Source: Bacteroidota bacterium
GTDB lineage: Bacteria; Bacteroidota; Bacteroidia; UBA7662; CANHCV01
DNA: 64,000 nt
Assembly: GCA_947501265.1 (NCBI GenBank)
Contig: CANMVY010000007.1
Location: 1-64,000, forward strand
Reading direction: 5' to 3'
Both the position numbers and the translations under genes were made by a program. This document shows positions 37,368 to 63,758 of the stretch, one piece after another (positions within the stretch are counted from its first letter, which is position 1; each line of letters starts with the position of its first letter). Under the pieces are notes generated by a model that ran no database searches, had not been told where the DNA came from, and saw nothing but the letters and a program-made list of their open reading frames with translations.

Positions 37368-40300
37368 ATGCGAACTCCCTTATTCACAGATTTTAGCAAG
37401 ACAACCAAGGCGGAATGGTTGAAAAAGATTGGCAGCGATCTCAAAGGAAAGTCCATTGACGACTTGCAAAAAACCAATTCTTCAGGATTTCAATTCAGTC
37501 CGTTTTGGAGTGAAGAAGACCAGCCCCAATTTCCTTTTCCTCAAATTCCAGGAGCATTTCCTTTCACTCGTTCGTATCGTTCCCAAAATAACCATTGGGA
37601 GATTTCGCAAAGCATCGATTTGTCTCAATCTGCAAAAACTGCTAATCACCAAATTCTGGATGCACTCCAAGGGGGCGCCAACGCTCTTTATTTTCAGAAT
37701 TATTCGCCAGCGGTTGAGCTGGAGCATGTTTTACAAGGGGTTTTCTTAAACTACATCTCCCTGCATTTTGCACCACACCCTCATCCTGAAGTGGTGCAGC
37801 AGTTGCAATCCATTGCCAACACTCAACAGGTTTCTTTGGATGAAATAACCGGTTCTTTTGGATTAACTGTAGCTAAAAAAAGCTGGGAAGTTTTTCCCAA
37901 AATGAGGTCCATTACCTTTTCCACGTTGGGGAAAGCACTAACTCCTCAAGAAGAAATTTATGAAATTGGAAAGCAAGTCATAGCGTTTTCCCAACATCAA
38001 TCGGTTGACGAATGGGCTCCGTACATTCAATTGGAATTGGAGGTAAAAACCGATTATTTCTCCGAGATTGCCAAGTTGCGCGCCCTTCGAACGGTTTATG
38101 CGTTGCTTACCAAAGCGTTGGGCGCGAAAAATATTTGCTCATCAGCCGCATTCATCCACTCGGTAAGTGCTCCAAGTTCCATTCTTCCCCAACTCGAACA
38201 CAACAACCTGCTTCGAACCACCACCGAAGCCATGTCGGCCATTCTCGGAGCTACGAATGCTCTCACCTTACTTCCGCACATTCCCGAAACGGCCGACTTT
38301 TCTCTTCGAATGTCGCGAAACATTCAGCATTTATTGCAAAATGAATCGCACTTCCACCAAGTGATCGATCCTGCAGCGGGTTCGTATTTCTTGGAAAACC
38401 TTACCCAGCACATGATCGACTCGGCCATGCATTCCCTCCAAGAATTACTGCCAGCGATCAGTGGGTTAAATTGGGAGAAAGATCCTTTTATTCCTCAATC
38501 GCAGGCTCCATCATTTGAAACTGCCGAACAAATTGTTCTACAACCGTTTTACCAAAAGGCCGATGTTGAATCGGTTGAACACCTTGGTTTCGGAGCGGGA
38601 ATCCCGCCATTTTTGAGAGGACCCTATTCTTCCATGTACGCTCAAAATCCTTGGACCATTCGTCAATACGCAGGTTTTTCTACCGCAGAGGAATCCAACG
38701 CATTTTACCGCCGAAATTTAGCTGCGGGGCAAATGGGACTTTCTGTAGCTTTCGATTTAGCCACCCATCGAGGTTACGATTCCGATCACCCTCGGGTGGT
38801 TGGAGATGTTGGAAAAGCAGGGGTCGCCATCGATTCGGTGGAGGACATGAAAATCCTTTTCGACCAAATTCCACTCGATCGAATGTCGGTTTCCATGACC
38901 ATGAACGGTGCTGTTCTTCCCATCATGGCGTTTTACATTGTTGCTGCCGAGGAGCAAGGCGTTTCTGCAGAAAAGTTAACCGGAACCATTCAGAATGATA
39001 TTTTGAAGGAGTTCATGGTTCGGAATACGTACATTTATCCGCCAGTTCCTTCCATGAAAATCATTGCTGATATTTTTGATTACACGGCCAAGAACATGCC
39101 GAAATTCAACAGCATCAGTATTTCTGGTTACCACATGCAAGAAGCCGGCGCTACCGCCGATATCGAATTGGCATACACCCTCGCCGATGGCTTGGAGTAT
39201 TTGCGTACCGGCATCGCAGCCGGCATGAAAATCGATGATTTTGCTCCACGATTGTCTTTCTTCTGGGCCATCGGAATGAATCATTTCATGGAAATTGCCA
39301 AGATGCGAGCCGGACGATTAATCTGGGCAAAATTGGTAAAACAATTCAATCCCCAAAATCCGAAGTCCATGGCTTTGCGCACGCACTGCCAAACTTCCGG
39401 TTGGTCCTTAACCGAACAAGATCCGTTCAATAACGTTGCTCGTACGTGCATCGAGGCGATGGCTGCTGCACTCGGACATACCCAAAGTTTGCATACCAAT
39501 GCCTTGGATGAGGCGATTGCACTTCCTACCGATTTTTCTGCTGCCATTGCGCGAAATACGCAGAAATACTTGCAAGAAGAAACGGGAATTACCCAAGTGG
39601 TAGATCCTTGGGGTGGATCGTATTACGTTGAATCCTTAACGCAAGAATTAGTAGATAAAGCATGGAAGCATATTCAAGAAGTTGAATCGTTGGGAGGAAT
39701 GGCTAAAGCCATTGAAACTGGAATTCCAAAGATGCGCATCGAAGAAGCTGCAGCAAGAAAACAAGCCCGAATCGATGCTGGAAAAGACATCATCGTAGGA
39801 GTGAATTTGTTCCAAAGTGATGAAAAAACGAAAATTGACATCCTTGAAGTCGATAATGTTCGTGTTCGTCAGCAGCAAATTGAGCGTTTGAATTCCATGA
39901 AAGCGAATCGGAACGCTGAAGCGGTGAAGGCTTCTTTGGAAGCACTTACCCACGCAGCTCAAACCGGCAGTGGGAATCTGCTGGATTTGGCCGTTATTGC
40001 TGCTCGTCATCGAGCGTCATTGGGTGAGATTTCCGATGCCTTAGAAACCGTTTATGGAAGGTATCAAGCCGTTATTCGCAGCATTGCTGGAGTTTATCAA
40101 AATGAAATTGCCATGAATTCTTCGTTTCAACAGGCCCGAACCATGGCCGATGCCTTTGAACAACAAAACGGTCGCCGTCCCCGCATTTTAGTGGCGAAAA
40201 TGGGACAAGATGGCCACGATCGCGGGGCCAAAGTCATTGCGACCAGTTTTGCCGACATCGGTTTTGATGTAGATATGGGACCGTTGTTTCAAACACCTGA

Positions 40301-61185: not shown

Positions 61186-61949
61186 GAAGTCATCACGTTA
61201 AGCGCCGCCATGGATTGAACAGAAGCATCCGGAAAAAAATGAGGGGCTTGCAAGCGCAAGCCACCGAAGGGGAGAATACGTTGAACATACCGCTGCAGTA
61301 ATTTCCATACTTCGGCATCTTCGGTAATTTCTCCTAGGGCATGAATTTGGGCTTCTTGGTTGTTGATCCCCAACGATTGAAAAACATTCAACACGTGGTA
61401 AAGCACATCCGTGCTTCCATGGAATGAAAAGGTATTGGCTAGCAGTAATTTTTGATCTTTCCCAACCCAAAACTGAAACGACTTATTTCGCAAGATCATC
61501 CAAATAACAGGTTCTTCATTCAATTGCAAGTGCTGAAAAAAAGCTTTCATCCAAAAAATTGTCATGGGAATGACCTCTTCGCCCCTTAATCCAGAAGTTT
61601 CGTGAATCACTGAAATTCCTTCTTCGGAAAGGGAATGAACTTTGGGAAATGCTTGATTGGAAAATCCGAGTTGTTGGGTAAGCTGATGGGCGTTGATGTT
61701 GGAAAGTAGGGCAGAAGGAGCCAAGGTAAAGTGAAACGGCTCGGCAATTTGCACCGCATCATCGTTCCAACCGGCCACTTGGGGAGTATGCTGCCGGTAT
61801 TCCAATTCATCGTCGAACAATTCCACCACGTCCATCTCCTGGGTGAGCCGATTCACCCACACCAAACCGAACAAGCTGCCCCAGTGGATAAACCGCGCTT
61901 GGTGTTCGGTGGAGTTGACGATGATTTGTCGAGGGTTGAAAGATTGCAT
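61182..61949 (-). CDS. DUF3822 protein
   Basis: The 255-residue cytoplasmic protein matches DUF3822, a family of Bacteroidota found upstream of rsmD. It has the two-lobed actin-like pattern only loosely, and no active-site motif is clear. The function is unknown; constant linkage with rsmD and coaD suggests a housekeeping role. It starts from a leaderless-type promoter that interlocks with that of the divergent thioesterase gene. Confidence 0.85.
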   Translation of the reverse strand: MQSFNPRQIIVNSTEHQARFIHWGSLFGLVWVNRLTQEMDVVELFDDELEYRQHTPQVAGWNDDAVQIAEPFHFTLAPSALLSNINAHQLTQQLGFSNQAFPKVHSLSEEGISVIHETSGLRGEEVIPMTIFWMKAFFQHLQLNEEPVIWMILRNKSFQFWVGKDQKLLLANTFSFHGSTDVLYHVLNVFQSLGINNQEAQIHALGEITEDAEVWKLLQRYVQRILPFGGLRLQAPHFFPDASVQSMAALNVMTS

Positions 61950-61971
61950 GCTTCAAAGTTACCTTTGCAAA
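61950..61971. promoter_or_regulatory. 22-bp divergent promoter with two interlocked -7 boxes
   Basis: The whole gap between two divergent start codons is 22 bp. Plus strand: TACCTTTG (61960-61967), CAAA, then ATG at 61972; a TTG at 61936-61938 is 21 nt upstream. Minus strand: TAACTTTG (61954-61961), AAGC, then the ATG at 61949. The two boxes share two base pairs in the near-palindrome CAAAGTTACCTTTG. Confidence 0.62.
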
Positions 61972-62379
61972 ATGGATTTAGAAACTCGAATTCGAGAGAA
62001 ATTAAAAGGACAGCGGTTCATGCACCACATCGGTTTTGAAATTACAAAAATTGAAGAGGGGCGCGTTGAAGGAGAAATGCAACTTCATGAGCATACAAAA
62101 CAACAATTGGACTTTCTTCACGGGGGGGTTACGTTAACGGTTTCAGATATCGTGATGGGATTTGCCGCTCTTACAAAAACTCCCGAACCCCACAAAGTGG
62201 TTACCGCTGAACTAAAATTATCTTTTTTAAATCCTGGAATTGGTGATCGAATTAGAGCAGTAGGAATAACTTTGAAATCAGGTTCAAAATTGCACTTTTG
62301 CGAGGCCGAAGTGTATGTCTATCACCAAGGGAAAGAAACACTTATCGCAAAATCATCTTCTACCATGGCAATCATTTAA
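61972..62379 (+). CDS. PaaI-family hotdog thioesterase
   Basis: The 135-residue enzyme hydrolyses acyl- or aryl-CoA. The motif EHTKQQLDFLHGGVTLTVSD with HGG is the PaaI/DUF4442 type, and VVTAELKLSFLNPG follows. It may protect CoA pools, also in phenylacetate breakdown (paaG-J-Z are 27 kb away), but that link is not shown. The ATG at 61972 is preferred because a longer frame would run into the divergent DUF3822 gene; a perfect -7 box is four bases upstream. Confidence 0.88.
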   Translation: MDLETRIREKLKGQRFMHHIGFEITKIEEGRVEGEMQLHEHTKQQLDFLHGGVTLTVSDIVMGFAALTKTPEPHKVVTAELKLSFLNPGIGDRIRAVGITLKSGSKLHFCEAEVYVYHQGKETLIAKSSSTMAII

Positions 62380-62388
62380 AACTTTTTT

Positions 62389-63309
62389 TTGAAACCGTTG
62401 TTGAGGGATAGAGAAAACGATAGAGCTTTGGAGCGATTTACAATTAAAGACATTGAAGTATTAACGGACATTAAGGCCCATACTTTGCGTATTTGGGAAC
62501 AGCGATACGATATTATTCGACCCAAACGCACCGATACCAATATTCGCTACTACGACGCTGAAGATTTAAAACTCCTGTTGAACATTTCTGTTCTCAATCA
62601 ACATGGCGTAAAAATTTCTTCCATTGCCGAAATGTCCAAGCAAGATATCGGACGAAAAGTAGCAGCGATTACCTTAAACAATTTTGATTCTGATCACCAA
62701 ATTAAAGCCATGGTTTACACCATGTTGGATTTGAATGAAGATCAGTTTGAAAAAATTGTGATGACGAACATTCTTCAAAAGGGATTCGAATCCTGCATGA
62801 TTGATGTGATTTTTCCGTTCATGTCAAACGTTGGTATTCTCTGGCTTTCAGGTTCCATCACCCCAGCCCACGAACATTTCATTTCGAACATCATTCGCCA
62901 AAAACTAATTGTTGCCATCGACGGACAAGTTCGTCACAAAAACGAGTGGGGCAAGAAATTTGTGTTGTACCTTCCTGAGAACGAATACCACGAGTTGGGT
63001 TTATTGTTTTCTTCCTATTTGATCAAAGCTCGCGGCCATCATGTGGTTTACTTAGGTCAAAGTGTACCGATCCTGGATTTGCCGGTTATCGAAAAAGAGT
63101 ATCAACCCGATTATTTTTTCACAGCGGTTACAACCAGTTTCCCCAAAGGTACAGTTCAAGATTACGTGAATGAGGTTCAGAAATTGGTTCCCAATGTTCC
63201 ATTTCTATTCTCTGGCCGTGAAGTTCTTCATAAAAATCCAGAACTTCCAGCAGGTTCTAAATTGATCAAAGATTTCAATCAATTGGTTGAAATGTTCAAA
63301 AATCTATGA
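62389..63309 (+). CDS. MerR-family regulator with cobalamin-binding domain (CarH/LitR-like)
   Basis: The 306-residue product has an N-terminal MerR DNA-binding domain (FTIKDIEVLTDIKAHTLRIWEQRY, residues 17-40), a four-helix cap (about 100-185) and a B12-binding Rossmann domain (about 188-300). The cap holds the Wx9EH motif (Trp152, Glu162, His163), and the B12 domain has ExHxxG (Glu199, His201, Gly204). In CarH these bind adenosylcobalamin, whose photolysis releases DNA. The gene overlaps the crtZ-like gene (ATGA), so light control of carotenoid genes is likely but inferred. No ATG is available near the start; TTG at 62389 or a nearby TTG is used. Confidence 0.86.
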   Translation: MKPLLRDRENDRALERFTIKDIEVLTDIKAHTLRIWEQRYDIIRPKRTDTNIRYYDAEDLKLLLNISVLNQHGVKISSIAEMSKQDIGRKVAAITLNNFDSDHQIKAMVYTMLDLNEDQFEKIVMTNILQKGFESCMIDVIFPFMSNVGILWLSGSITPAHEHFISNIIRQKLIVAIDGQVRHKNEWGKKFVLYLPENEYHELGLLFSSYLIKARGHHVVYLGQSVPILDLPVIEKEYQPDYFFTAVTTSFPKGTVQDYVNEVQKLVPNVPFLFSGREVLHKNPELPAGSKLIKDFNQLVEMFKNL

Positions 63310-63758
63310 TGTCAATCATTTGGTTTTTATTGGGTTTCGTTGGAATGGAATTGGCTTCCATTTTTATCCACCAGTACTTATTTCACGGACCATTGTGGTT
63401 CATTCACAAAACACACCACCGTCCGAACTCCGGGTTTTTCGAGTTGAACGATTTGTTTAGTTTGATTTTCGGAGGTTCTTCGGTTTACTTGATAGTTACG
63501 GGTGCTTCTGAGATGACTCCATCCTTCTTCATTGGATTGGGGATTGCTCTCTACGGTTGGTTATATTTTATCTTGCACGATATCGCCGTTCACCGAAGAA
63601 TAAAAAACAAGATTTTTTTCAAAAACAAGTACCTCAATTGGGTACAAAGAGCCCATTGGGAACACCACAAAACCCAAGAAAAAGATGGGAGCGTAAGTTT
63701 TGGGTTGTTTTGGATACCTGTACATTTGTGGAAAAAATACATGGTTGAAAAACGGTGA
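63306..63758 (+). CDS. crtZ: Beta-carotene hydroxylase (CrtZ-like, fatty acid hydroxylase superfamily)
   Basis: The 150-residue integral membrane di-iron enzyme hydroxylates beta-ionone rings to give zeaxanthin-type carotenoids. All four His clusters are visible: HQYLFH, HKTHH, HDIAVH and HWEHH. About four membrane segments alternate with them. The length is that of bacterial CrtZ. It starts within the stop of the MerR-B12 regulator (ATGA) and is thus co-translated with it. Confidence 0.88.
   Translation: MMSIIWFLLGFVGMELASIFIHQYLFHGPLWFIHKTHHRPNSGFFELNDLFSLIFGGSSVYLIVTGASEMTPSFFIGLGIALYGWLYFILHDIAVHRRIKNKIFFKNKYLNWVQRAHWEHHKTQEKDGSVSFGLFWIPVHLWKKYMVEKR

What the first reader, a model, noticed from the sequence alone, without database searches (positions are those of the whole stretch)
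62389..63758. B12-based light-sensor candidate translationally coupled to a carotene hydroxylase gene
The MerR-type regulator at 62389 has the full cobalamin-photoreceptor signature: Wx9EH (Trp152/Glu162/His163) in the helical cap and ExHxxG (His201) in the B12 fold. Its stop codon overlaps the start of a crtZ-like gene (ATGA). This suggests light-released repression of carotenoid modification, with the repressor made from the same message (autoregulation). CarH and LitR are known in Myxococcus and Thermus; the cap residues here predict the AdoCbl-photosensing subclass in this lineage.
Basis: partly seen in the sequence, partly recalled or inferred. Interest (0 to 1): 0.68.

Follow-up and report, generated by a model that had tools for sequence, protein, structure and literature searches.

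The report
Vitamin-B12 light-switch regulator of carotenoid genes
The gene encodes a CarH-like repressor that probably uses vitamin B12 to sense light; its likely DNA target is not its own gene pair but a distant promoter controlling a sigma factor and the main carotenoid genes, in an arrangement that recurs across the Bacteroidota.

Summary
A MerR-type regulator with a cobalamin domain lies at 62428-63309 and overlaps crtZ (ATGA); Trp152, Glu162-His163 and ExHxxG are present. AlphaFold plus Foldseek return CarH structures first. W, E and E are invariant in 110 Bacteroidota homologs; each His occurs in 106. "Full signature" overstates: the SxV/T-GG half is altered, and the CarH bis-His ligand (His132) is Leu here and almost never His in the clade. 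CtMerR, with Arg there, still monomerises in light.

The inferred target is wrong. Comparing carH-ECF intergenic regions gave an inverted-repeat operator, TTTGTTTAA-N16-TTAAACAAA (32/39 regions; 0.26% of shuffles). In this genome it lies on another contig, upstream of ECF sigma-crtI-crtB-lycopene cyclase. No copy occurs in the window or upstream of carH-crtZ in 17 loci of its order. Across 197 genomes the site follows carH (73/125 with, 2/72 without), not the ECF gene (17/22 carH-only, 0/11 ECF-only). Elsewhere it precedes photolyase, FolE or carH.

Best reading: a light-released AdoCbl repressor acting in trans on an ECF-carotenoid regulon; autoregulation and direct crtZ control are unsupported. 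New variant of a known kind.

The parts
62428..63309 (+).
   Evidence: PDB best hits TtCarH 5C8D/3WHP E~3e-17, Foldseek best 5C8E 3e-15
62437..62640 (+). MerR winged-helix DNA-binding domain
   Evidence: Pfam MerR_1 residues 17-84
62704..62907 (+). four-helix cap of the cobalamin domain (B12-binding_2)
62842..62847 (+). Trp152 (conserved cap Trp) followed by Leu153 (TtCarH His132, the bis-His ligand, is absent)
62872..62877 (+). Glu162-His163 of Wx9EH
62983..63000 (+). ExHxxG: E199-Y-H201-E-L-G204, with the lower axial His
63121..63126 (+). Thr245/Ala246 in place of the Ser of SxV/T
63211..63216 (+). Ser275-Gly276 in place of GG (the second Gly is 110/110)
63306..63758 (+). crtZ-like beta-carotene hydroxylase, ATGA overlap with the regulator
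61972..62379 (+). hotdog thioesterase, first gene of the likely operon; upstream of carH on the same strand also in several order relatives
61936..61967 (+). Bacteroidota-type promoter-like TTG-N21-TAccTTTG just before the thioesterase ATG, identical from the TTG on in three congeners; no CarH-type operator overlaps it
   Evidence: promoter consensus from general knowledge

Best explanation
The protein is a CarH/LitR-type repressor of a Bacteroidota-wide clade. In the dark, AdoCbl held between the Trp/Glu/His cap and the Rossmann His should make an oligomer that binds pairs of the inverted repeat TTTGTTTAA-N16-TTAAACAAA. In this genome the pair brackets the -33/-7 promoter of an ECF sigma gene heading crtI-crtB-(hypothetical)-lycopene cyclase-desaturase-acyltransferase-glycosyltransferase-cruF-like, and lies between it and a divergent gene run ending in PTPS and FolE. 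Light cleaves the Co-C bond, the oligomer leaves, and the ECF sigma and carotenoid genes are switched on. carH and crtZ are probably co-transcribed with a thioesterase from an ordinary promoter without this operator, so crtZ is probably not a direct target. Shown: sequence, predicted fold, operator and its association with carH, and the genes next to it. Inferred: AdoCbl binding, light response, DNA binding by this protein, sign of regulation.
For: Fold and domains. AdoCbl-contact residues invariant or nearly so. AdoCbl can be made: PduO-type adenosyltransferase, and a methylmalonyl-CoA mutase that uses it is in the window. Operator: 32/39 carH-ECF upstream regions at <=2 mismatches of 18 versus 0.26% of shuffles; spacer almost always 16; repeat pairs 43-44 or 63-65 bp apart. 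Own genome: PWM scores 37.9 and 23.9 upstream of ECF, nothing above 11 in the window; the only exact N16 copy genome-wide. Operator follows carH, not ECF: carH+ 73/125, carH- 2/72 (Fisher 6e-17); carH-only 17/22 versus ECF-only 0/11, p=2e-5. Half-site TAAACA fits the TnnACA core of the CarH repeat nAnnTnnACAn (PMC8156234). Genes next to the site elsewhere: photolyase, FolE, PTPS, crt genes, as in the Pseudomonas LitR regulon phrB/folE (PMC9758184).
Against: Identity to TtCarH is only 24%, and the NCBIfam CarH model scores 86 bits against a cut-off of 400. His132 is absent, and TtCarH H132A mostly stays tetrameric in light (PMC10442372); but CtMerR with Arg there does monomerise in light (PMC11796333). 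The SxV/T-GG tail pocket is altered. CarH sites are direct repeats, these are inverted repeats. No direct binding, B12 or light data. The genome counts ignore shared ancestry.
Confidence: 0.68

Rival explanations
1. The protein binds the operator but is not a photoreceptor: it has become B12-independent or senses B12 level or redox, like Myxococcus CarA or class II LitR, with light sensed elsewhere.
For: His132 lost in nearly all of the clade, altered SxV/T-GG motif; four Saprospiraceae-like homologs have lost the axial His and cap His; CarA and class II LitR show that such loss happens.
Against: Trp and Glu of the cap are 110/110 and both His 106/110; CarA lacks Wx9EH (PMC8156234); genes near the operator include photolyase.
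Confidence: 0.2
2. The inverted repeat belongs to the ECF sigma factor or another regulator, and carH merely travels with it.
For: The motif usually lies at the ECF promoter.
Against: Genomes with a close ECF homolog but no carH: 0/11 have it; with carH but no close ECF: 17/22. Palindromic, fixed spacing, found before carH itself in other lineages.
Confidence: 0.1
3. One reading: CarH represses its own operon and so controls crtZ directly by light.
For: Translational overlap, conserved in most of the order; operator upstream of carH in 8/90 loci of other lineages.
Against: Best match upstream of carH in the window has 6 of 18 mismatches; none of the 17 order loci has <=3 mismatches; no PWM hit in 64 kb.
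Confidence: 0.07

Closest known systems
CarH of Thermus thermophilus (pTT27, with ldrP)
   Same: MerR DBD, four-helix cap with Wx9EH, ExHxxG Rossmann domain, carotenoid targets, operator overlapping the promoter, stop-start overlap with the next gene
   Different: 24% identity; no His132; altered SxV/T-GG; inverted instead of 11-bp direct repeats; inferred target is an ECF sigma-crt operon in trans
CtMerR of Chloracidobacterium thermophilum
   Same: MerR-AdoCbl photoreceptor without His at position 132; Foldseek match 8JBT/8JBS
   Different: Only about 12% identity in the Foldseek alignment; GxxH is NxxH here
Class II LitR (PplR/PmlR2) of Pseudomonas
   Same: Two-armed operator at promoters; targets include photolyase and folE
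   Different: These have no complete B12 domain; PmlR2 uses a LOV partner; site TGTACA-N12-TGTACA
CarA/CarH and CarQ of Myxococcus xanthus
   Same: Light control of carotenoid genes involves both MerR repressors and an ECF sigma factor
   Different: There the ECF factor CarQ is not placed under the MerR proteins' operator (PB drives crt genes); here the operator lies at the ECF gene itself (and general knowledge)

Membership tests
CarH (AdoCbl photoreceptor, class I LitR) | MerR DNA-binding domain plus C-terminal cobalamin domain | tested here: met
CarH (AdoCbl photoreceptor, class I LitR) | Wx9EH in the helical cap | tested here: met
   W/E 110/110, H 106/110 in the clade
CarH (AdoCbl photoreceptor, class I LitR) | ExHx2Gx41SxV/Tx22-27GG, strict | tested here: not met
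   ExHxxG present; Ser is Thr (shift of one) or Ala; GG is SG
CarH (AdoCbl photoreceptor, class I LitR) | NCBIfam CarH equivalog cut-off (400 bits) | tested here: not met
   86 bits
CarH (AdoCbl photoreceptor, class I LitR) | AdoCbl binding and light-driven disassembly | not testable with these tools
   needs protein; adenosyltransferase present
CarH (AdoCbl photoreceptor, class I LitR) | bis-His light state (His132 equivalent; seen in TtCarH, not required in CtMerR) | tested here: not met
   Leu153; His in 1/110 of the clade; also missing in photoactive CtMerR
CarH (AdoCbl photoreceptor, class I LitR) | operator of 11-bp direct repeats at the target promoter | tested here: not met
   inverted repeats with a 16-bp spacer at the ECF promoter
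SignatureFinder light-responsive CBD | GxxW, EH, GxxH, GxxxP | tested here: inconclusive
   GxxW, EH and GxxxP met; GxxH is NxxH in this genus, G in 79/110 of the clade
CrtZ carotene hydroxylase | His-box membrane hydroxylase (FA_hydroxylase) | tested here: met
   HX4H, HX2HH, HX4H and HX2HH boxes read by eye

The most novel reading that the evidence does not exclude
A Bacteroidota-wide clade of AdoCbl photoreceptors that lacks the bis-His switch and uses inverted-repeat operators controls a light regulon (ECF sigma factor, carotenoid genes, photolyase, FolE/PTPS, DUF4397 and fasciclin surface proteins), a light-response circuit for which I found no description in the papers searched.
Probability: 0.55. 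Interest if true: 0.66.

Novelty: new variant of a known kind. Interest (0 to 1): 0.52.

Why it matters
Light-induced carotenoids have been reported in a Bacteroidota strain with the regulator unknown (Chryseobacterium lacus, PMC7064467). Here a candidate sensor, its DNA site and its target promoter are named together, so one EMSA and one reporter would test the circuit. The missing His132 in a whole clade also bears on the open question of how CarH proteins couple photolysis to disassembly.

Tried and rejected
No operator found near 61950-62390 or anywhere in the window. The only looser site in the own genome, C14:22852 (spacer 13-14), was set aside: the reversed-pattern control also gave one. 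Own photolyase loci (C21, C1) carry no operator in the fetched stretches. The idea that the motif belongs to the ECF factor was tested and disfavoured. I first read the x41 Ser as replaced by Ala or a hydrophobic residue (notes); the multiple alignment instead puts Thr/Ser in that column in 94/110, so I treat it as conservative but alignment-dependent. A first alignment had minus-strand loci unreversed and was redone. Paper searches for a Bacteroidota CarH found none; most subscription papers are not held. Locus L101 is probably the same contig as L029 (equal contig length), so it is not counted as an extra locus of the order.

Full report
What is there. The window holds a thioesterase (61972-62379), a MerR-cobalamin regulator (to 63309) and crtZ (63306-63758) on one strand, closely spaced and then overlapping by ATGA. 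The regulator's stated start, TTG 62389, is doubtful: in the congener G002 the stretch before LERF/VERF contains an in-frame TAA, the model is disordered over residues 1-12, and a start at TTG 62428 (GTG in G002, TTG in G001) is shared.

Protein. Pfam gives MerR_1 and B12-binding_2; the best solved relatives are Thermus CarH. A 43-sequence AlphaFold2 model has mean pLDDT 89.9 and its Foldseek matches are headed by full-length CarH chains, with CtMerR further down. The sequence is 24% identical to TtCarH. In 110 homologs (30 from genome relatives, unbiased by motif; 80 from a scan whose pattern included ExHE) Trp152, Glu162 and Glu199 never vary and His163 and His201 are kept in 106. So the cap and axial residues are under strong constraint.

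Departures from CarH. The residue after Trp, His132 in TtCarH, is Leu here and Gln/Leu/Val/Ile in almost the whole clade (His 1/110). H132A TtCarH mostly stays tetrameric when lit (PMC10442372), yet CtMerR with Arg there forms tetramers that monomerise in light (PMC11796333), so the change is not disqualifying. The Ser of SxV/T aligns with Thr245 (T or S in 94/110) and GG is mostly [S/T]G with the second Gly invariant. By the strict published definition (both motifs; PMC8156234) the protein is CarH-like rather than a certified CarH.

Genome context. Named relatives are all Bacteroidota (apart from one MAG labelled Thalassovita). The main carotenoid genes lie on another contig (C5): ECF sigma, crtI, crtB, hypothetical, lycopene cyclase, second desaturase, acyltransferase, glycosyltransferase and a CruF-like gene, without crtZ. 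An adenosyltransferase and methylmalonyl-CoA mutase are present, so AdoCbl is likely available.

Neighbourhoods. In Algoriphagus-type genomes the order is cruF-crtZ-carH-(about 200 bp)-ECF-crtI-crtB-lycopene cyclase; in many Bacteroidales-type genomes carH is followed by ECF without crt genes; in the window's order carH is followed by crtZ and the ECF-crt operon is elsewhere.

Operator. The carH-ECF gaps share TTTGTTTAA-N16-TTAAACAAA. At <=2 mismatches of 18 it is in 32/39 regions against 0.26% of shuffled ones. Two copies are often present, 43-44 or 63-65 bp apart, bracketing or overlapping the TAnnTTTG element. The half-site fits the CarH TnnACA core, though CarH uses direct repeats.

Own genome. 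The only exact N16 copy is C5:67340-67373, with a second weaker one at 67276-67309, both in the gap between ECF-crt and a divergent gene run that ends in PTPS and FolE. Both congeners and the order relatives whose ECF upstream region was read have the same pair or a close version of it. Nothing scores in the window; upstream of carH in 17 loci of the order the best match has 4 or more mismatches, 6 in this genome. The thioesterase-carH-crtZ operon starts at a plain TTG-N21-TAccTTTG promoter-like site that is identical in three congeners from the TTG on.

Whose site? In 197 class genomes the exact site is in 73/125 carH+ and 2/72 carH- genomes (Fisher 6e-17); in carH+ without a close ECF 17/22, in ECF+ without carH 0/11 (p 2e-5). 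The reversed control pattern occurs in three of the 197 genomes. Shared ancestry makes these p-values optimistic, but the direction is clear. The site also precedes carH itself in 8/90 loci of other lineages. Other neighbours of the site include a DNA photolyase, FolE, PTPS, four DUF4397 proteins and a fasciclin protein, recalling the phrB/folE regulon of Pseudomonas LitR.

Mechanism. I conclude that the protein is most likely a dark repressor released by light, acting in trans on the ECF-carotenoid promoter. Carotenoid synthesis would be gated at the ECF/crtI/crtB level, while carH and crtZ are supplied constitutively or by other control. Sign of regulation, light dependence and B12 dependence are inferred from CarH and not shown.

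Verdict. The molecule was read well; the circuit was not. Light sensing is plausible and testable; autoregulation and direct crtZ control are not supported.

Noticed in passing
L059, L080, L085, L094 (mostly Saprospiraceae/Lewinella MAGs): Four homologs have lost both the axial His (ExQ) and the cap His (EN/ES) but keep Trp and Glu: natural candidates for B12-independent, CarA-like descendants.
   Followed up: no
L122, L135, L136, L137 (site at 1501): Four genomes carry the exact operator directly next to secreted DUF4397 proteins, an unexplained possible member of a light regulon.
   Followed up: partly
L006:12398-15435 (C5): Divergent from ECF-crt: a tightly packed four-gene run ending in PTPS and FolE that shares the operator region; no Pfam hit for the first gene.
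   Followed up: partly
window 37479-40058: Methylmalonyl-CoA mutase gene in the same window, a second likely AdoCbl user.
   Followed up: no
L126:1011-1496, L123, L132: A small protein without a Pfam hit in the one copy scanned (L126), similar by eye in L123 and L132, lies next to the operator in three genomes, once divergent from a photolyase.
   Followed up: no
L180 (G028), L181 (G059), L182 (G040): crtI-crtB clusters in genomes without carH have no ECF gene next to them and no operator upstream.
   Followed up: yes
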